Positions 186 through 9,136 of a stretch of DNA of 9,353 nt are shown here, one piece after another. Source of the DNA: Candidatus Omnitrophota bacterium (GTDB taxonomy: Bacteria; Omnitrophota; Koll11; Gygaellales; JAQTUY01); assembly GCA_028707105.1 (NCBI GenBank), contig JAQTUY010000057.1, forward strand, positions 1 to 9,353, in the 5' to 3' direction. Position 1 is the first letter of the stretch. Every line of letters starts with the position of its first letter. The position numbers and the translations under genes are program-made. The notes beneath the pieces were generated by a model. The model was not told where the DNA came from. It saw only the letters and a list, made by a program, of their open reading frames with translations, and searched no databases.

Positions 186-214
186 TTGACAGCGCAAGTT
201 ACTGATAGTACAAT
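186..214 (+). promoter_or_regulatory. Sigma-70-type promoter for pyrE and the following operon
   Basis: TTGACA at 186-191, a 17-nt spacer, then TACAAT at 209-214: a near-consensus promoter. The distance from the -10 box to the pyrE ATG at 222 is 7 nt, so the expected start point is at or within a base or two of the A of that ATG. There is no Shine-Dalgarno-like sequence before the ATG. Together these suggest a leaderless transcript. The -35 box also overlaps the TTG at 186 that would otherwise extend the pyrE frame upstream, which argues against using that codon. Confidence 0.8.
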
Positions 215-221
215 ACATACC

Positions 222-782
222 ATGCATACATACACATTAGAAGAGGCGAAAAAACGTTTGTTTCATTTGCTGGATACCCAGGCTTTAAGCAGGGGCAAGG
301 TAATATTATCTTCGGGTAAGGAAAGTAATTATTATCTTGACGGTCGTCTGGTTACTTTAAGCGCCGAGGGAGCCTACCTGGCCGCCCGGCTCATCCTGGA
401 CCTGGTAAAGGATACGGAGATAGACGCCATTGGCGGACCGACTTTAGGGGCGGATCCTTTGGTGGGAGCCATAGGCGTTTTAAGCTATCTGGAGAAAAAG
501 CCGGTGAGCACTTTTATCGTGCGTAAGGCGCCTAAAGCCCACGGCAAGATGCGTCAGATAGAGGGGCCGCGGTTAAAAAAGGGAAGCCGGGTGGTGTTGA
601 TAGACGATGTCGCCACTACGGGTAAGGCTTTAATAGAGGCGAAGCAGGTCTTGGACGGGGAAGGGATAGAGGCCGATACGGCGATAGTCGTCATCGACAG
701 GCAGGAAGGGGCTGAAAAAAACCTGTTTCCTCACGGCCTTAAGCTTGTTTCACTCTTTAAGGCTCAGGATTTCGGGGTATGA
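222..782 (+). CDS. pyrE: Orotate phosphoribosyltransferase
   Basis: Transfers the phosphoribosyl group of PRPP to orotate, giving orotidine 5'-monophosphate, the fifth step of UMP synthesis in the cytoplasm. The 186-residue protein has the usual bacterial length. Visible hallmarks are SGKESNYYLDGR (31-42), typical of the family's N-terminal orotate/PRPP region, the flexible catalytic loop RKAPKAHGKMRQIEG (101-115) with its Lys/His pair, and the PRPP-binding loop VVLIDDVATTGKAL (124-137). I chose the ATG at 222 over an in-frame TTG at 186 because the TTG lies inside the -35 box, and MHTYTLEEAKKRL is a normal PyrE beginning. The stop overlaps the start of the next gene by 4 nt (ATGA), so translation is probably coupled. 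pyrE is the first gene of a four-gene run; no other pyrimidine gene is in the window. Confidence 0.95.
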   Translation: MHTYTLEEAKKRLFHLLDTQALSRGKVILSSGKESNYYLDGRLVTLSAEGAYLAARLILDLVKDTEIDAIGGPTLGADPLVGAIGVLSYLEKKPVSTFIVRKAPKAHGKMRQIEGPRLKKGSRVVLIDDVATTGKALIEAKQVLDGEGIEADTAIVVIDRQEGAEKNLFPHGLKLVSLFKAQDFGV

Positions 783-1576
783 CCTCAAGAGGCGTATTAT
801 TATTTTTTTTAGGCGCCGCTTTATTCAGCGGGTGCTCGACCGAATATAACCTGGCCACCAAACAGGAAGAGTGGATCTATTATTCGACGGACCAGGAAGT
901 GCAAATGGGCCGTTCGATAGCCAAGGCGATCAATAAGGAATATAAGCCCCTGAATGATCCCCTGGTGCAGAAACGGGTGGAGGACATCGGAAAGAAAATA
1001 GCCGCTGTCTGCGACAGGAAAGAAATAAGTTATCATTTTTACACGATAGAGGATAAGCAGGACCCTAATGCTTTTGCGTTGCCCGGGGGATATATATACG
1101 TTAATAGTAAGCTCTTGGATATGATCGGCAATGATGATGAACTTGCTTGTGTCCTGGGCCATGAAGTCGCGCATGTGGTAGCCAGGCATAGTATGAAAAA
1201 ACTGCAGGCATCGATGGGGTATTCCCTTTTCAGGGTTTTGCTGGCTACCGCGCCGGTTGAAGGCTCGGGCGATCTTGGTTACGGCTCGGATGTCGCCTTT
1301 ACGATAGTCATGTTGGGTTATTCGCGCGAAGATGAGCTATTGGCAGACCAATATGGCACGCGTTACGCCAGGGCCGCCGGTTATGACGGCCACGGCATGA
1401 TAACTTTCCTGGAAAAACTGCGCGCTTATGACCGCAGGCAGCCGCTAAGGGCCCATAGTTATTTCAAGACCCATCCCTATATTCCGGACCGCATACGCAT
1501 AGTGAAGCAGGAGCTTGGAGAAAAGACTGATTTTGATGATTATATAAATATCGAGCAGGAGCCGCATAAGAAATAA
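779..1576 (+). CDS. M48-family zinc metallopeptidase, predicted lipoprotein
   Basis: A 265-residue protein with a short lipoprotein signal (MTSR, then a hydrophobic run ending LFSGC, lipidated Cys at 19), so it should be anchored in the envelope and face the periplasm. The M48 peptidase signature is complete: HEVAH (128-132) with two zinc-binding histidines and the catalytic Glu129, and SREDELLADQYG (182-193), where Glu186 is the expected third zinc ligand and Asp190 the conserved helper. THP (231-233) followed by the RIR segment is the usual C-terminal M48 motif. Size and layout resemble LoiP/BepA-type proteases that handle misfolded outer-membrane proteins, but there is no TPR tail as in BepA, so I give no gene symbol. 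The start overlaps the pyrE stop; AGGA at 766-769 can serve as ribosome site. It is followed 19 nt later by the membrane protein. The family is certain; the substrate is unknown. Confidence 0.92.
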   Translation: MTSRGVLLFFLGAALFSGCSTEYNLATKQEEWIYYSTDQEVQMGRSIAKAINKEYKPLNDPLVQKRVEDIGKKIAAVCDRKEISYHFYTIEDKQDPNAFALPGGYIYVNSKLLDMIGNDDELACVLGHEVAHVVARHSMKKLQASMGYSLFRVLLATAPVEGSGDLGYGSDVAFTIVMLGYSREDELLADQYGTRYARAAGYDGHGMITFLEKLRAYDRRQPLRAHSYFKTHPYIPDRIRIVKQELGEKTDFDDYINIEQEPHKK

Positions 1577-1582
1577 CAATAT

Positions 1583-1589
1583 GGGGGAG
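1583..1589 (+). promoter_or_regulatory. Ribosome binding site that fixes the start of the four-TM protein
   Basis: GGGGGAG lies 6 nt before the ATG at 1596. The earlier in-frame ATG at 1581 directly abuts this purine run and has no Shine-Dalgarno of its own. Starting at 1596 also gives a clean signal peptide (MKKAIF...). The site therefore decides the start in favour of 1596. Confidence 0.8.
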
Positions 1590-1595
1590 CGTAAA

Positions 1596-2351
1596 ATGAA
1601 AAAAGCGATCTTTATCGCAGTTGCGTTATTATTTTTTAGTTCCTTGGTTTGCGCGCAGACAGGCACACTGCAGGAATTAAAAGAAAAAGCCCTGACCGCG
1701 GAAGAAAGTGTGGTCTCCAAGATCGATACCGGGGTATCCAGCACAATGACCGGGTCGATGGATTTCCTGCACAAGGTCGTCCAGGAGGAAGGCGAGAAGG
1801 TCCCGCAAAAAATGGATCTCAAGGAGACGGTTATCCTGACCGTAGGGAATCTGGTCCTGTCGTTATTATGCCTGGTATTGGCCGTATTCCTGGTCACTAA
1901 GGTGCCGGCTTCCCAGAAATATCTCTGGTTCCTCTTTATTTTTAACGTCTCCTGGTTTATTATGGTGATAATCGCCAAGGGCGTGTGGGCGACGCTGGAT
2001 TACCTGGTCATAAAGTTAGAGCCGGCCCTGGCAGGCGGCATCTATGATCATTTTTTCATAATATTCGTGATAGTGAGTATGCTTATTTATATCTGGCTTT
2101 TGGCCCGTACCTTCGGCTTGAATTTTTACGGAGCGCTGGGGAGCTTTCTGGTCGCGCATTTTATCTATTTCTTCGTGGTCGCGTTTTTCCTGGCGGTCTT
2201 CAGCCCATATAACGAGAACAGGCTTTTTTCCCTAATAAGGGAAAATATCGGGATACGCTCGGTAATACGCAGCTACGTCGGGGATATGAATAGCATCTCC
2301 CATAATGCCGATATAGGATCGTTTGTTAAATTTAAATATTATCACCTGTAA
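1596..2351 (+). CDS. Unrecognised membrane protein with signal peptide and four TM segments
   Basis: I do not recognise a family. The 251-residue product starts with a signal peptide (MKKAIFIAVALLFFSSLVCA, likely cut after residue 20 before Gln-Thr). A polar, helix-prone stretch of about 55 residues follows (roughly 21-75, rich in Glu, Lys, Ser and Val). Four hydrophobic segments come next at about 79-101, 109-128, 150-171 and 178-203, then a polar tail of about 48 residues with Arg214, Arg221 and Arg225 and the ending FVKFKYYHL. With the N-terminus outside after cleavage, four segments put the tail outside too. The short loops carrying Lys/Arg (102-108, 171-177) would be inside, which agrees with the positive-inside rule. 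It lies between the M48 lipoprotein and the large signalling protein, with gaps of 19 and 15 nt, so co-expression is likely. A role as a membrane partner of one of them is inference only. Confidence 0.8.
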   Translation: MKKAIFIAVALLFFSSLVCAQTGTLQELKEKALTAEESVVSKIDTGVSSTMTGSMDFLHKVVQEEGEKVPQKMDLKETVILTVGNLVLSLLCLVLAVFLVTKVPASQKYLWFLFIFNVSWFIMVIIAKGVWATLDYLVIKLEPALAGGIYDHFFIIFVIVSMLIYIWLLARTFGLNFYGALGSFLVAHFIYFFVVAFFLAVFSPYNENRLFSLIRENIGIRSVIRSYVGDMNSISHNADIGSFVKFKYYHL

Positions 2352-2366
2352 TCTAGATGAGGCCGC

Positions 2367-5300
2367 ATGCCCTCTGAACGTTATAAGGTCCTTGAGGAGT
2401 TTATAAGCGATCCTCTAAGCGTTGTTTATAAGGCGCGCGATCTTGAGCAGGGAGGACCGGTATTATTATCAGTCCTTTCCGAAAAAGCGAGAAACCGCCC
2501 CATCGATATCCTGATGCGTTTTAAAAGAAGCGTGGAGCAATTTTCCAAGCTTGCGCATCCCAACCTTCTTAAGATCCTCTCCGTACTTGACTCCGACGAC
2601 GAGTTCAGCCTGGTTTACGGGTATTTCGATTCCGAAAGCCTTTCTAAACATTTAAATAAACCCTGGGATATAAATAAGGCCGTGGACCTGATCATACAGG
2701 TCTCATCCGCCCTGGACGAAGCGCATCAACAGGGCCTGCTGCACCAGGCTGTCTCGCCCGGCAGTATTCTATTGGGCCGTGAGCAGCCCCAGGCTGTCAG
2801 GCTCTATAATTTCGGTTTTTCCATACTCAGGGATATAAGCAAGATCACCCGTAAGGAAGATGTGGTAAGTACGTTCGGTTATCTTTCTCCCGAGTCCAGC
2901 GGAATATTGCGCAAGCCCGTGGATTACCGGTCGGATATTTATTCCCTGGGCATTGTTTTTTATCAACTCCTTACCGGAAGACTGCCTTACCTGGCCGACG
3001 ATATGTCCAGCCTGGTCCATCAGCATATCGCTACTAAACCCGCCGCGCCGTCGGTCCTCAACCGTCAGATACCGCCGGTCCTGGATAATATTATCTTAAG
3101 GCTTATGGCTAAGGAGCCCCAGGAGCGCTACCAGGGTTTAAAAGGGTTGATCTCGGACCTGAGGGAATACCAGAAGCAGAGCGCGCAGGGTAAGCCGCTC
3201 ATCGATTTTGAGATCGCCAGGTCCGACAGGTTAGCCCAGCTGTCTTTTTCTTCCAAGATGATAGGCCGGGAGAGCGAGCTGGGCCGAATGAGGGATCTTT
3301 TAGGGCAGGCTAAACGGGGCAACGGGTCCCTTTGTTTTGTCTGCGGCGAGCCGGGTATCGGAAAGTCGCGTTTGATCGACGAGCTGCGCGGGTATGTTTA
3401 CGGATTAGGGGGATTATTCGCGGGAGGTAAATGCTATCAATATGAATTGCGCGTCCCTTATCGTGTCTGGAGCGAAGCGATCGACGCCTATATCGAGAAA
3501 ATAAAACGGCTCTCCCAGGCTGAGCAGGATGTCCATATAGGGCGGATAAGAGATTCGCTGGGGGAATTGGGCAGTGAAGTGGTAAAAATAGCGCCTGCCC
3601 TGGCCGACCTTGTCGGCGTCCAACCTAAGCCCGCGGAATTGGAACCGGAAAAAGAAAGGGTTCGTTTTCTTATAACCGTGGCTAATTTTGTCGCCTCCCT
3701 GGCTTCGCGGGAAAATCCGCTGCTGCTGTTTTTGGACCATATGCATTGGATGGATGATGTCAGCGCGGAGATCTTGTTCAGGGTAGCTGAGAAAATATCA
3801 GGCCTGCCTATTCTTTTGGTCGTTTGCTATCGTGACGCTGAAGTAGGGCACAATCATCCTCTTGACCAGTTGATTAAAACGCTGGATAGCCGGGATATCC
3901 CATATTCCAAAATAAGCCTGAAGAGCTTGACGGTAAAAGAAACCTCGGAGATGGTTTCCCAGATACTGATGGAGAAAGAGGAGCAGGTCATGCCTTTGGC
4001 GCAGTTCCTTAATCAGCGGGCCAAAGGCAATCCTTTTTTTACCATTGAACTCCTGCATTCGCTGGCCGAGACCGGACTTATATATTTGCAGGAGGGGCAG
4101 TACATCTTTAATTTAAGCAGGATAAAGGAGGTCGCCCTTCCCGAGGATATCGTTGATATTATCCTCAAAAGGACAAAAGACCTCTCCTTGGAACAGCAGC
4201 AGTTCCTTTCTTACGCCGCGGTCATGGGCAGGGAGGTCCAATTCGACCTTCTCTCCAGGGTAACGGGCCAGCCTTCGGATTTCATAGTAAACACAATAGA
4301 GAAGAGTATAGAAAAGCAGTTCTTGTTCCGCGACATCGTGGGAAAAGAAAAAGTGTTTTTTATGCATAGCAGGATCCGCGAGGCCTTCTATAACAGGATC
4401 TCTTATGAGGCCCGGGTCCCTCTTCATCGCCAGATAGGAATGGTGCTTGAGGAGCAGAATAAGGCAAATCCGGATGTTATCTTGTATGATCTGGTGCACC
4501 ATTTTACTCAAGGTTACGTACACGAAAAAGTCCTGCATTATTCGGTCATCGCCGCCGCGAAGGCAAAGTCTTCTTACGCCAATACCATGGCCGTTAATCT
4601 CTTCGAGCTTGCCCGCGATATACTGGAGAGGGAAAACAGGAAGAACTCCCCGAAATACATGGAAATAATCGAGAACCTCGGTGAGGTTTACCGACTGGCC
4701 GGAAGGCTGGATGAATCCATCGCAACGTTTAAAACCCTGCAGTATTATATACCCAAGCAGGATATGATATCTCAGGCCCGTGTTTTGTCTAAAATAGGCG
4801 ACGCTTTTTTTGATAAAGGAGAAGTAAAGGAAAGCATTTACGCCCTGGAAAAAGCCTTATTGGCCCTGGATGTGCGCATTCCTAAAACCAGGCCCGGATA
4901 TCTCCTGGAGATACTTAAAGAGATCTTGGTGCAGGCGCTTCATACCTGGTTTCCCGGGGTATTCATCGGGAAAGGGCAGGTTTCTTCTCCCAGCCGGACC
5001 ATAATACTTAAGACATTCTTAAGGTTGGTGCATATTTACTATTTTTCCGACATCAATAAAGTCTTTTATTTTTATCTTAAGACCTTGAATATGGCCCAGG
5101 AAACAGGCCCCGGCCCGGAACTTGCTTATTGTTATATTGAGGGGGCGGCGGTCTGGCCCACTTTGCCCTGGTTCTCCCGCGCCTTTAGCGATGGTAATAA
5201 GGGATTAAAAATGGCGCAGGAGATGGGCGATAAGATGCGCGAAGGGAGCGCTAATGTTTACCTGTCGCTCTATTCATATGTCGTGAATGACCCGCGGGCC

Positions 5301-7445
5301 AGCCTGGACTATTCCCGGAAGGCTATCAACCTGTTAAAGGGCCTGGGTGAATATTGGGACCTGAGCATGGCCTATACCTTTAGGAATTACAGCAGTTGGA
5401 TAACCGGAAGGTTAAAAGAGAATATCGCCGAGGGGGAAGAGTTCATCGCGCTGGCTAAAGAGGCAAATGCCCTGCGGGGCCTGGGCTGGGCGATATTCGG
5501 CAGGTGCAAGACGCTATGCCTGATCGGAGAAGTGGACGATGCCACGATAAAGACCGTCAATGAATTCAATATCCTTATCCAGAGAACGCAGGATAAGCCC
5601 AATGTCTTATGGTCGCTGTGTATTCTTTCATTCGCTTATCTAAGGCGGGGTGAGTATGAACAGGCCATACAGGTAATCAAGGAGGCTTCTGATCTGTTCG
5701 CCCTTCAATATAATAAGACCCCCTGGCTGTTAGATTTCTTTCCTTTAGGGGCTCAAATATATCTTGATGTTCTGGCTGACGCGCCCGGCCTGTCTAAAGA
5801 GACAAAAGCGGCCTATATGGAGAAAGCTGAGTGGTTATGCCGCTTGTCTTACAAATGGAGCAGGAAATATCAGTATTGCCTGGGTTGGGCATATCAGGTG
5901 AATGGCACCTGCCTGTGGCTTGCCGGTAAGAAAGAAGACGCGGTTTATGCCTGGGACGAGGGTATAAAATTCCTGAGGGAGAAAACTGGGGATAAGTACC
6001 GCTTAGCCTATCTTTTGCTTGAGGAATCCATGTTTTCTCTGATGGATGACCCCCGCGATAAAAAGGCCCTGACTAACCTTCTGGAGGCCAAGGAGCTCTT
6101 TATCAGTATGGGTTGTAAGCAGGACCTTCAAACCTGCAATGAATTGCTTTTCAAGTTGATACCTCAGGGAGAAGGAGTAGAATCCAGGGATGCCCTGACC
6201 CAAAGGCGCCACCTGGAGAGCCTGCTTTCGGTAACCAGGGCGATCGGTTCGGTATTTGCTCTGGATGAGCTGCTCAGAAGGGTCCTGGATTACGCCTTGA
6301 AGGCTACCGGAGCCGAACGCGGCTTATTGCTGCTTTATGATGATAAAACCAATCAGCTTAATTTGAAATTAAGCCATGGCGTGGAAATATCAGATTTCTT
6401 TTCTTTTGAGTCCTACAAGATCAGCCTGGAGTTGATCAGGGAAGCGGAAAAAGCTAAAGACGCTATTCTCGCCAGCCCTGAAAGCGCGGTCAGCGCGAAA
6501 GTCCAGAATGAGCTTAAAAGCTACAATGTAAAACAAGCCCTGGCAGCTTACCTGAGTTCGCGGGATAAGCCAATAGGCATACTTTATCTGGATAATTCAC
6601 TTTCCGGAGGCACATTCGGCAAGCAGGAACTGGAGCTGATGCAGTCTTTTGCCGTCCAGGCTTCGGTATCCCTGGAAAACGCGAACCTGATCTCTGACCT
6701 TCTGGACCAGGCGCGGCTTAAGCAGGAACTGGAACTTGGGCGCGAGATACAGATGGATCTGCTTCCTAAAGTTACGCCTGTTATTCCGGGCCTTAAGGTA
6801 TCGGGGCTGATGCTGCCGGCTAAGGAGATAGGAGGGGACTACTACGACTTTTTGCCTAATCCACAAACTAACAGCCTGAGCATTGTTATAGGAGACGTCT
6901 CCGGTAAGGGGGTAGCCGCGGGATTACTCATGGCTATGGTCAAGACTTGCCTCTACGCGTTAAATAAACAGCCCATCTCTCCCCGCGAGATACTACTGGC
7001 CACCAACCAGATGCTTTATGAGCATATCAACGCCAAGAAATTCATGACCATGCTTTATTTGACCTGGGACGCGTCCAGGAAGAAATTCATTTATTCATCG
7101 GCCGGTCATGAGCATATAATTACATACAGGGGCGGTATTGCGGAGGCGGTCTTGAGCGGCGGGTTCATGCTTGGGATGCTGCCCGAGATAAGCTCTTTCC
7201 TGGAAGATAAGGAATTAGTTTTAAATCCGGGAGATAAGATAGTGCTTTATACCGACGGCGTAACCGAGGCCAGGGATCCCAATGAGAAGCTGTTCCGCTT
7301 AGAGCGCCTGGTTGAATTGGTCCGGAAGCACGGGGCAAAACCTGCCGACCAGCTCCTGTCGGTCATTAAAGAGGAAGTCTATTCTTTTATCGGCACCCGC
7401 GAGCAGTTTGATGATATTACTCTCGTAGTCATGGAAGCTGCGTAA
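2367..7445 (+). CDS. Pseudokinase / STAND ATPase / TPR / GAF / SpoIIE-type PP2C phosphatase fusion protein
   Basis: A 1692-residue signalling protein without signal peptide or clear TM segment, so probably cytoplasmic. Domain order: Ser/Thr-kinase fold (about 6-270), AAA_16/STAND ATPase (298-600) with its helical continuation (600-760), TPR-like helices (765-1260), GAF (1285-1437), coiled linker (1440-1465) and SpoIIE/RsbU PP2C phosphatase (1470-1690). The N-terminal plan matches the known bacterial family annotated as kinase/ATP-binding protein/sensor histidine kinase, found for example in cyanobacteria and myxobacteria. Here the kinase is catalytically dead and the C-terminal output is a phosphatase instead of a histidine kinase. 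The expected activity is ligand- or partner-controlled dephosphorylation of a phosphoserine/threonine protein, classically an anti-anti-sigma STAS protein. GAGG at 2359-2362 precedes the ATG by 4 nt, and the kinase fold begins at residue 6, supporting this start. It is the last gene of the pyrE run, ended by the hairpin at 7448. The architecture is secure; the target and signal are unknown. Confidence 0.93.
   Translation: [1692 protein letters not shown]
2382..3176 (+). other. Domain: degenerate Ser/Thr kinase (pseudokinase)
   Basis: The fold is recognisable from HPNLL (64-68), [10 protein letters not shown] (170-179, the APE region), [23 protein letters not shown] (starting at Asp186) and the C-lobe end [10 protein letters not shown] (247-256). 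The catalytic residues are all replaced: the glycine-rich loop (9-23) has no glycine, the VAIK lysine is Ser35, the alpha-C glutamate is Ser55, HRD is His126-Gln-Ala128, the following Lys and Asn are Ser130 and Ser133, and DFG is Asn148-Phe-Gly. By established kinase rules this cannot be a normal phosphotransferase, so a binding or regulatory role is inferred. Confidence 0.9.
3258..4646 (+). other. Domain: AAA_16/STAND-type ATPase with helical continuation
   Basis: The domain opens with the typical MIGRESEL (298-305). Walker A is GEPGIGKS (327-334). The Walker B region is [13 protein letters not shown] (452-464), corresponding to the usual hhhhED-LHWAD, but with His458 where the second acidic residue is expected. 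KGNPFF (553-558) matches the sensor-like GNPF motif of this class (MalT/AfsR-like and kinase-linked ATPases). ATP binding looks likely. Hydrolysis may be slow or absent because of His458, which is inference. Confidence 0.88.
4659..6146 (+). other. Domain: TPR-like helical repeat region
   Basis: Two fairly clear TPR units are seen at about 764-797 ([18 protein letters not shown]) and 804-837 ([21 protein letters not shown]). Further degenerate helical hairpins continue to about 1260, for example [20 protein letters not shown] (1088-1107) and [20 protein letters not shown] (1180-1199). In STAND proteins such a region usually binds a protein or small-molecule inducer and controls the ATPase. The binding partner is not evident. 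Confidence 0.75.
6219..6680 (+). other. Domain: GAF sensor
   Basis: Residues 1285-1437 have the GAF outline: [23 protein letters not shown] entry helix, [13 protein letters not shown] first strands, and [39 protein letters not shown] at the end (positions 1401-1439). A small-molecule or chromophore ligand is possible but cannot be named. I saw no obvious bilin cysteine or cyclic-nucleotide NKxnFx3DE motif. Confidence 0.85.
6714..7436 (+). other. Domain: SpoIIE/RsbU-type PP2C phosphatase, catalytic residues intact
   Basis: The linker helix [15 protein letters not shown] (1454-1468) is the usual entry to RsbU-like phosphatases. Metal-site motifs are present in order: GGDYYDF (1489-1495), IGDVSGKG (1508-1515), [10 protein letters not shown] (1628-1637) and FDDITLVV (1681-1688). 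The metal-binding aspartates Asp1491, Asp1510, Asp1630 and Asp1683 are therefore all retained, and an active Mn/Mg-dependent Ser/Thr phosphatase is expected. Confidence 0.92.
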
Positions 7446-7504: not shown

Positions 7505-7589
7505 TGGTGCGGAGGGGGGGAGTTGAACCCCCAAGTCTTGCGACATATGCTTCTGAGACATACGCGTATGCCAGTTCCGCCACCTCCGC
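7505..7589 (-). tRNA. tRNA-Leu, anticodon CAG
   Basis: On the minus strand this is an 85-nt class II tRNA with encoded CCA. Acceptor strands GCGGAGG (7589-7583) and CCTCCGC (7515-7509) pair over 7 bp, with discriminator A and CCA at 7507-7505. The D stem is GCG/CGC. The anticodon stem TATGT/GCATA holds the loop CTCAGAA (7557-7551), giving anticodon CAG at 7555-7553, which reads CUG leucine codons. A long variable arm (GTC-GCAA-GAC) and the T arm GGGGG-TTCAACT-CCCCC complete it. The long variable arm and discriminator A agree with leucine. Confidence 0.96.
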
Positions 7590-7703: not shown

Positions 7704-8654
7704 ATGTTTATAACCGCTTTTAGAACAACGGGATTGGCGATCCTGGAGATATTTATTATAGGCGCTCTGGGTTTTTGGCTGGTAAAACGCAAGACCTTGA
7801 GCGATGAGGGCTTGAACGGTTTAAGCAAGATCGTTTTGGACCTGACTGTGCCCTTATTCATATTTACCCAGTTCGTCAAAGAATTCAGTTTCTCTCTTTA
7901 CCCGAACTGGTGGATCTTTCCGATCTTAAGCATCAGTCTTACCGCTTTAGGCTTCGCGATCGGAAGTTTTTTCAGCTGGAGCGTTAAGATTCCCGATGAG
8001 AAGATGCAGTTTTTCAGCCTGATCGGGTTTCAGAATTGCGGCTATCTTCCTTTGCCCCTGATCGCCGCGTTGTTGCCTCCGGCGGAAGCAAGTCAGATGT
8101 TCATCTATACGTTTTTATTCATGGCCGGGTTCAATCTGTTGGTGTTCTCTGTGGGCGTGTGTATGTTGACAAGCGATAAGACTAAGCGGCTGGAATGGGG
8201 CAATTTTTTTAATCCCCCGGTCGTAGCTACTCTTCTCGGGCTTTTATTCGTATTCCTGGGCGCGCAGAATTCCATCCCGGATTGGATCTTCCGCCCTTTA
8301 AAAATGACCGGGGACTGCACGCTTCCGCTGGCTATTTTTGTCGTCGGAGGAGGGCTGGCGGAAATATCATTTAAGAAAAAATTTAACCACCAGGCCGTGT
8401 TTTTTGTTCTGCTCTCCAAGCTGCTGATTATGCCTTTGCTGATATTGTTGATATTATCTCAGGCCGGAATTCCCCGCCTTATCGGGATGCTCTTGTTGAT
8501 CCAGGCGGCTGTTCCTTCCGCCACCACCTTATCAGTGATCCTTACTCATCACCGGAAGCAGGACTATATCGTTAACCAATCCATATTCCTGGGGCATATA
8601 TTTTGTATCGTGACGATACCGCTGTTCCTCAGCCTGTTCTATATGCTTAAGTAG
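7704..8654 (+). CDS. AEC-family (auxin efflux carrier-like) permease
   Basis: A 316-residue, very hydrophobic inner-membrane protein with about ten predicted TM segments in two halves separated near residues 155-170 (TSDKTKRLEWGNFF), the layout and length of the AEC/Mem_trans family. Family marks are VLDLTVPLFIF (44-54), GFQNCGYLPLPL (108-119, with the conserved Asn111 in the broken helix of the first half), NPPVVATLLGLLF (170-182) and QAAVPSATTLSV (267-278, the matching break in the second half). Bacterial members export or import small organic acids such as malate or malonate; others are uncharacterised, so no substrate is assigned. It has its own promoter and a good ribosome site, and is followed after 17 nt by smpB, with which it is probably co-transcribed. 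No functional link between the two is evident. Confidence 0.9.
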   Translation: MFITAFRTTGLAILEIFIIGALGFWLVKRKTLSDEGLNGLSKIVLDLTVPLFIFTQFVKEFSFSLYPNWWIFPILSISLTALGFAIGSFFSWSVKIPDEKMQFFSLIGFQNCGYLPLPLIAALLPPAEASQMFIYTFLFMAGFNLLVFSVGVCMLTSDKTKRLEWGNFFNPPVVATLLGLLFVFLGAQNSIPDWIFRPLKMTGDCTLPLAIFVVGGGLAEISFKKKFNHQAVFFVLLSKLLIMPLLILLILSQAGIPRLIGMLLLIQAAVPSATTLSVILTHHRKQDYIVNQSIFLGHIFCIVTIPLFLSLFYMLK

Positions 8655-8671
8655 CGAGGTCCGTAGATACT

Positions 8672-9136
8672 ATGGCCATTAAACTGATCGCCACAAACAA
8701 GGAAGCTTACCGTAATTACGAGATCCTGGAGAAACTGGAGTGCGGTATAGAGCTAAAGGGGAGCGAGGTTAAGTCCTGCCGTTCGGGCCACGCTCATGTG
8801 AAGGAGAGCTTCGCCAGGCTTGAAAATAACGAGATTTTTCTATATAATAGTTATATCAGCCCTTACCAGGAAGCCAGCTATTTGAACGTCGAATCCAACA
8901 GGGTAAGAAGGCTTCTTCTGCATAAGAGCCAGATCAGGAAATTTGCCTCCCACATAATATTGCGTGGGCACGCCTTGATCCCTTTAAGCATGTATTTCAA
9001 TGAAAAGGGGACGGTCAAGATCGAACTGGCGTTATGCAAGGGTAAAAAACTTTATGACCGCAGGGAAGATATCAAGCGCAAGGAATCGGACCTGCATCTG
9101 CGTAAAGCGCTCATAGGAAGGCTCAAGAAAAGATAG
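8672..9136 (+). CDS. smpB: SsrA-binding protein SmpB
   Basis: A small basic protein of 154 residues (normal length) that binds tmRNA and brings it to the empty A site of stalled ribosomes in trans-translation. Clear SmpB marks: ATNKEAYRNYEILEKLECGIELKGSEVKS spanning residues 7-35 (Asn9, and GSEVKS at 30-35), NSYISPY (59-65), RRLLLHKSQI (79-88), LIPLSMYF (102-109) and GKKLYDRRE (124-132). The basic tail that enters the mRNA channel follows, ending LIGRLKKR. The only purine-rich candidate, GAGG at 8656-8659, is 12 nt from the ATG, a rather long spacing, so translation may depend partly on coupling with the upstream permease gene. Its RNA partner ssrA begins 80 nt downstream on the same strand. 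Confidence 0.96.
   Translation: MAIKLIATNKEAYRNYEILEKLECGIELKGSEVKSCRSGHAHVKESFARLENNEIFLYNSYISPYQEASYLNVESNRVRRLLLHKSQIRKFASHIILRGHALIPLSMYFNEKGTVKIELALCKGKKLYDRREDIKRKESDLHLRKALIGRLKKR

What the first reader, a model, noticed from the sequence alone, without database searches (positions are those of the whole stretch)
2367..7445. Five-part signalling protein that ends in a phosphatase instead of a histidine kinase
Pseudokinase, STAND ATPase, TPR region, GAF and SpoIIE-type PP2C are seen in a single 1692-residue frame. The well-known bacterial relatives with a kinase-ATPase-TPR-GAF plan end in a histidine kinase. Replacing that output with an RsbU-like phosphatase would turn a two-component-type sensor into a partner-switching regulator acting on a STAS anti-anti-sigma protein or another phosphoprotein. 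No target gene is nearby, so the pathway is open.
Basis: partly seen in the sequence, partly recalled or inferred. Interest (0 to 1): 0.75.

Follow-up and report, generated by a model that had tools for sequence, protein, structure and literature searches.

The report
Dead-kinase STAND sensor ending in phosphatase
A very large bacterial sensor protein carries a degenerate protein kinase, an ATP-driven switch, a helical repeat arm and a GAF domain, and ends in a phosphatase of the kind that controls sigma factors; the layout is not unique, but some relatives with nearly the same sensor body carry a histidine kinase in its place, joined at the same helix.

Summary
ORF 2367-7445 (+, 1692 aa) is one intact frame with pseudokinase, STAND ATPase, helical (TPR-type) repeats, GAF and SpoIIE-type PPM phosphatase, identical to a protein deposited from a Candidatus Omnitrophica MAG. 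It is not an assembly fusion: relatives of 36-61% identity share the order. The plan is not new: 59 of the 120 listed homologs (526 found; own protein included) carry kinase, AAA_16, GAF and SpoIIE together. Less expected: (1) around the window protein the kinase lacks its catalytic Asp in 40 of 40 readable rows, while fold residues are invariant and the phosphatase metal residues intact; (2) HK-ended P0037 and P0039 sit inside the phosphatase-ended group, their bodies 82-85% identical to phosphatase-ended neighbours, homology stopping in the helix after GAF. Best reading: a STAND sensor activating a dimeric RsbU-like phosphatase through a coiled-coil helix, probably acting on a STAS protein. 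The target is unproven: no STAS or RsbW gene was found in the window, and its genome is not held.

The parts
2367..7445 (+). whole gene, 1692 aa, ATG start 15 bases after the stop of the upstream ORF
   Evidence: identical to P0001
2367..3221 (+). Hanks-type pseudokinase domain (residues 1-285); catalytic Lys, alphaC Glu, HRD Asp, loop Asn and DFG Asp all replaced
3258..3794 (+). AAA_16 / STAND ATPase core (residues 298-476), Walker A and B present
4404..6158 (+). TPR-type helical repeat arm (residues about 680-1264); its middle part 1001-1150 is the most divergent of 8 regions compared
6261..6680 (+). GAF domain (residues 1299-1438)
6621..6758 (+). continuous 46-residue helix (1419-1464) that ends the GAF and leads into the phosphatase; place where homology ends between relatives with different outputs
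6759..7436 (+). SpoIIE/RsbU-type PPM phosphatase domain (residues 1465-1690), metal Asp residues present
1581..2351 (+). upstream 256-aa ORF, probable membrane protein (judged by eye from its hydrophobic stretches), possible operon partner; no family over cut-off, 14 homologs

Best explanation
It is a STAND-class sensor, probably cytosolic, with a phosphatase output. Shown by sequence or model: degenerate kinase fold, P-loop ATPase motifs, long helical arm, GAF, one long helix, complete PPM metal residues. Inferred: the fast-evolving helical arm (and perhaps the GAF) binds the signal or a partner; ATP binding by the STAND module changes assembly of the protein; this brings two GAF-helix segments together; the paired helices form a coiled coil that dimerises and switches on the two phosphatase domains, as reported for RsbU; the phosphatase then removes phosphate from a STAS-type anti-anti-sigma protein, which ties up an RsbW-like kinase and frees a sigma factor or other partner. 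The pseudokinase no longer transfers phosphate and serves as docking or allosteric domain. The helix after GAF is an exchange point: relatives with nearly the same sensor body carry a PAS-histidine kinase-receiver output there.
For: Domains and motifs. HRD Asp absent in 25 of 25 readable rows of the core clade and 15 of 15 of the neighbouring rows, present in 67 of 71 of the rest; APE-Glu, alphaF-Asp and alphaH-Arg invariant in every readable row. Model with a 46-residue helix between GAF and PPM, pLDDT 87.3; solved matches RssB 3f79/3f7a, Rv1364c 3ke6, SiaA 6k4e. STAND-TPR protein 6mfv matches the N-terminal model. The joining helix is the most conserved of 8 regions (75% mean identity over 45 pairs) and the middle repeat part the least (40%). 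Different outputs after that helix on 82-85% identical bodies. RsbU activation by a coiled-coil linker and the proposal of exchangeable outputs: PMC12143880, abstract and passages. In G026, a genome of the Auribacterota set, STAS, phosphatase and RsbW-type genes lie in a row.
Against: No STAS or RsbW-type gene among the six main window ORFs. Four of four relatives' genomes have both families, but in the three whose relative's contig number I know (G003:C248, G026:C1, G253:C238) no match lies on that contig; the fourth was not placed. Both families are also common in the 14 control genomes (10 and 12), so presence proves little; for G026 and G253 the output domain of the relative was not established. 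The window's genome is not held and no Omnitrophota genome could be reached. The models are monomers with pTM 0.56 and 0.70, so domain arrangement and dimerisation are untested. Loss of catalytic motifs does not strictly exclude residual or different activity. The substrate could be another phosphoprotein.
Confidence: 0.55

Rival explanations
1. The phosphatase opposes Hanks-type kinases elsewhere in the cell (general Ser/Thr phosphoprotein target), the pseudokinase domain recruiting phosphorylated substrates or partner kinases; no sigma factor is involved.
For: Many more distant relatives with the same SpoIIE end have an intact kinase (HRD Asp in 67 of 71 rows of the rest group, which also holds other outputs). 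In an Auribacterota locus a GAF-SpoIIE gene with an N-terminal stretch that looks FHA-like to the eye lies directly before a Ser/Thr kinase gene (L028).
Against: The domain is SpoIIE/RsbU-type; RssB, Rv1364c and SiaA are among its nearest solved structures, and I recall these as partner-switching proteins with STAS-type substrates (recalled, no call).
Confidence: 0.25
2. A defence-type STAND sensor: the helical arm recognises a phage or foreign protein and the output triggers an abortive response.
For: STAND-TPR build; matches to PADLOC kinase models such as PD-T4-6 (E down to 9e-55) and mad6.
Against: The PADLOC matches shown (25 of 32) all lie in the kinase domain, residues 3-297, as expected of any Hanks kinase fold; housekeeping neighbours (phosphoribosyltransferase, M48, SmpB); the five HK-ended relatives scanned carry ordinary signalling domains.
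Confidence: 0.05
3. The kinase domain is still an enzyme of a non-standard kind and the protein is a true kinase-phosphatase.
For: Neighbouring rows keep beta3 Lys (10 of 15) and DFG Asp (10 of 15).
Against: The window protein lacks Lys, alphaC Glu, HRD Asp, loop Asn and DFG Asp; in its own clade Lys survives in 1 of 22 and DFG Asp in 0 of 25 readable rows.
Confidence: 0.07

Closest known systems
HstK family of cyanobacteria (kinase-GAF-histidine kinase; grouped as cbSTKIII in PMC2176072, passages)
   Same: N-terminal Hanks kinase fold and GAF before the output; proteins with kinase, AAA_16, GAF and HK are in the same homolog list
   Different: HstK ends in a histidine kinase; here a phosphatase, and the kinase is degenerate
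RsbU / RsbP / RssB partner-switching phosphatases (B. subtilis, P. aeruginosa)
   Same: SpoIIE-type PPM domain behind a sensor domain and a long helix; RssB and Rv1364c are among the best structural matches
   Different: input is a body of over 1400 residues (pseudokinase, STAND, repeats, GAF); no STAS or RsbW gene found in the window
Pkinase-AAA_16-GAF-SpoIIE proteins of Microcoleus, Planktothricoides, Leptospiraceae and Spirochaetales (database entries)
   Same: same domains and similar length
   Different: 24-28% identity over 42-54% of the query by BLASTP, on a separate branch of the ATPase tree; kinase motifs mostly intact
P. aeruginosa PP2C-kinase fusion gi|9947763 (PMC1262709, passages)
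   Same: phosphatase and Hanks kinase fold in one chain
   Different: phosphatase N-terminal to the kinase; no STAND, TPR or GAF named in its table row
STAND-TPR protein 6mfv
   Same: matches the N-terminal model over 784 alignment columns
   Different: 13% identity, TM 0.31/0.48, rmsd 11.4; its other domains were not compared

Membership tests
SpoIIE/RsbU-type PPM phosphatase | Pfam SpoIIE over cut-off and metal-binding Asp residues | tested here: met
   157.3 bits vs 25; D1491, D1494, D1510, D1630, D1682, D1683 invariant in 20 of 20 rows
SpoIIE/RsbU-type PPM phosphatase | PPM fold | tested here: met
   Foldseek E 5.2e-14 to the RssB phosphatase domain, TMt 0.80
SpoIIE/RsbU-type PPM phosphatase | phosphatase activity | not testable with these tools
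   needs protein
partner-switching module | STAS substrate and RsbW-type kinase gene beside the phosphatase gene | tested here: not met
   none among the six main window ORFs scanned with Pfam; the window shows 2366 bases before and 1908 after the gene, so only near neighbours were seen
partner-switching module | STAS and RsbW genes in the same genome | not testable with these tools
   window genome not held; both present in 4 of 4 genomes of distant relatives
active Hanks-type Ser/Thr kinase | catalytic Lys, HRD Asp, DFG Asp | tested here: not met
   Ser35, Ala128, Asn148
HstK-type kinase/histidine kinase | C-terminal HisKA and HATPase_c | tested here: not met
   neither is among the 24 families listed for the protein at E up to 1
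STAND NTPase | P-loop with Walker A and B followed by helical repeats | tested here: met
TOMM_kin_cyc (TIGR03903) | score over curated cut-off | tested here: not met
   184.3 bits vs 705.75

The most novel reading that the evidence does not exclude
A dead-kinase STAND sensor body has become a plug-in signalling chassis: the same body drives either protein dephosphorylation or histidine-kinase phosphotransfer, exchanged more than once at one coiled-coil helix, and output-less copies of the body (five 1256-1260 aa proteins that look naturally ended) form mixed assemblies that tune the others. It would be a natural experiment for the proposal that coiled-coil linkers make bacterial outputs interchangeable.
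Probability: 0.4. Interest if true: 0.68.

Novelty: new variant of a known kind. Interest (0 to 1): 0.5.

Why it matters
PMC12143880 (abstract and passages) proposes that phosphatases, histidine kinases and diguanylate cyclases share a coiled-coil coupling that lets sensor domains be exchanged. Pairs such as P0022/P0039 and P0024/P0037 (85% and 82% identical over about 1147 aligned positions, kinase domain not counted; different outputs, homology ending in that helix) would let the idea be tested with natural proteins. The clade also shows a kinase fold kept without its catalytic residues ahead of a phosphatase with a complete metal site.

Tried and rejected
Assembly fusion: rejected, because relatives with the same order exist in other records.

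HK-to-phosphatase replacement: rejected for the two clearest cases. The positions of the other HK ends (P0041, P0042, P0046) are less certain, so the ancestral output of the whole clade is not settled.

Chimeric metagenome contigs as source of the HK-ended P0037 and P0039: not excluded; each is listed on 3 contigs, none of which could be read.

Short 1256-1260 aa relatives as cut contigs: P0032 and P0033 do look cut; P0023, P0026, P0029, P0030 and P0031 end at the same point in a similar sequence and were taken as natural. Same-length contigs (14767, 15653) suggest neighbouring pairs, but those contigs could not be read.

Conserved operon with the 256-aa upstream gene: 14 homologs; I saw no contig length shared with the 120 listed relatives of the big protein, a weak test since only the longest contig is given; left open.

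Reaching an Omnitrophota genome: the first genome scan confirmed no relative; the second used generic phosphatase patterns, 80 of 580 kept; relatives of an Auribacterota genome gave 2 of 289 with E below 1e-90, at 26% and 29% identity; SmpB as phylum marker was not informative; phylum searches gave 0 of 136 and 1 of 44, the same G026. A STAS search found 9 proteins; 3 of 9 carry a source name, none Omnitrophota.

Viral collection: 1 of 58 stretches confirmed, matching only residues 1283-1690.

Literature: no listing pointed to a paper on this architecture; that is limited to the open library and these terms. Passages only were read of PMC1262709, PMC2176072, PMC2887360, PMC12143880, PMC12088040 and PMC8638967; the others were seen as listings.

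Limits of the counts: the homolog list is the best 120 of 526, found with a SpoIIE-ended query, so SpoIIE ends are over-represented. The 11 pairs were chosen by me for having different labels, and a break near the domain border is expected in any such pair. Output labels were set by hand from the Pfam column, and the core/mid/rest groups by hand from the tree. P0036 and P0038 (fragments) were left out, P0044 too; one search used 21 hand-picked rows of the 44. In one search, 96 of 118 rows were counted; the other 22 had no readable output or one outside the four classes. On that tree the outputs still follow kinship more than shuffled labels do (25 changes; 100 shuffles had mean 31.7, lowest 27).

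Full report

The kinase is degenerate. Relative to PknB and to the family, beta3 Lys35 is Ser, alphaC Glu55 is Ser, HRD is HQA, the loop Asn is Ser, and DFG is NFG. By group (hand-made groups, rows with a gap at the site left out): core clade, named Omnitrophota where an organism name is shown, HRD-Asp 0 of 25, Lys 1 of 22, DFG-Asp 0 of 25; neighbouring rows HRD-Asp 0 of 15, Lys 10 of 15, DFG-Asp 10 of 15; two basal rows 2 of 2 for each; the remaining rows HRD-Asp 67 of 71, Lys 64 of 71, DFG-Asp 62 of 71. APE-Glu, alphaF-Asp and alphaH-Arg are invariant in every readable row. This fits early loss of the catalytic Asp and later loss of the rest, with the fold retained. The phosphatase Asp residues are invariant in 20 of 20 aligned SpoIIE-ended rows, own protein included.

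The architecture is not unique. Of the 120 listed homologs (526 found at E up to 1e-5), 63 carry SpoIIE by the precomputed Pfam column, and 59 carry kinase, AAA_16, GAF and SpoIIE together, own protein included (my count). They include Microcoleus, Planktothricoides, Leptospiraceae and Spirochaetales entries. A quick tree of the ATPase region (118 of 120 rows) separates a 45-row group containing the window protein from a 66-row group containing those named entries; both hold phosphatase-ended and histidine-kinase-ended proteins.

Within the 45-row group the output differs between close relatives. A careful tree of residues 290-1436 from 21 hand-picked rows puts HK-ended P0037 with SpoIIE-ended P0024 (100/100), and HK-ended P0039 with SpoIIE-ended P0019 and P0022 (100/100). 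Holding P0037 and P0039 together is rejected (AU p 1.4e-43; the pair was named after seeing the quick tree); so is holding three HK-ended rows (6e-38) or all five (1.2e-7). Over residues 290-1430 P0022/P0039 are 85% and P0024/P0037 82% identical, and identity falls to about 20% within the helix after the GAF. Pfam finds PAS, HisKA, HATPase_c and receiver domains in P0037 and P0039. The output parts of these two are 55% identical to each other, and their bodies 68%, so re-use of a related HK module or recombination between paralogs is possible, and chimeric contigs are not excluded. In 11 of 11 chosen pairs with different outputs the change point lies in the stretch after the GAF, as a domain border would also give.

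Five relatives (P0023, P0026, P0029, P0030, P0031; 1256-1260 aa) stop at the same point before the GAF and have no output. Two pairs are listed with contigs of the same length, suggesting neighbouring genes; the contigs were not readable.

Regional divergence among ten SpoIIE-ended core proteins (45 pairs): middle repeat part 40%, N-terminal repeat part 49%, C-terminal repeat part 56%, kinase 61%, GAF 62%, phosphatase 63%, ATPase 64%, joining helix 75%. I read this as a variable input arm and a constrained coupling helix.

Mechanism. PMC12143880 (abstract and passages) reports that RsbT activates RsbU by making its linker a coiled coil that dimerises the phosphatase, and proposes that sensors can be exchanged among phosphatases, histidine kinases and diguanylate cyclases through such linkers. 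The protein here fits: GAF, long helix, PPM; and relatives show different outputs after that helix. The target is inferred. No STAS or RsbW-type gene is among the six main window ORFs. The genome is not held. Four of four genomes of distant relatives have both families, but so do most control genomes, and in three of the four no match lies on the contig of the relative. In one of them, G026, from the Auribacterota set, a STAS gene, a phosphatase gene and an RsbW-type gene lie in a row (the STAS and RsbW-type matches are, the phosphatase was read by eye).

Earlier surveys seen in passages: PMC1262709 reported PP2C-kinase fusions with the phosphatase first; PMC2176072 described the HstK group; PMC2887360 and PMC12088040 surveyed bacterial phosphatases. 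None of the passages read describes this five-part plan.

Verdict: real and intact, a new variant of a known kind; the lasting interest lies in the dead-kinase chassis and the output exchange, not in a unique architecture.

Noticed in passing
window 1581-2351 (+): 256-aa ORF with N-terminal signal-like and hydrophobic stretches (by eye), no family above cut-off, 14 homologs in the large protein database.
   Followed up: partly
window 7505-7589 (-): tRNA-Leu (CAG) gene, convergent with the big gene.
   Followed up: no
window 186-1576, 7704-9136 (+): Neighbours are a phosphoribosyltransferase (orotate type by eye), an M48 peptidase, a Mem_trans transporter and SmpB.
   Followed up: partly
L028 1953-5700 (+): Candidatus Theseobacter (Auribacterota): a GAF-SpoIIE phosphatase gene with an apparent FHA-like N-terminus directly before an intact-looking Ser/Thr kinase gene with HEAT-like repeats (all by eye).
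   Followed up: no
   Followed up: partly
L007 275-11016 (+): Planctomycetota: SpoIIE-ended relative with intact HRD followed by a second very long gene of 1812 aa; that genome gave 127 matches to the query, many of them kinase domains.
   Followed up: no
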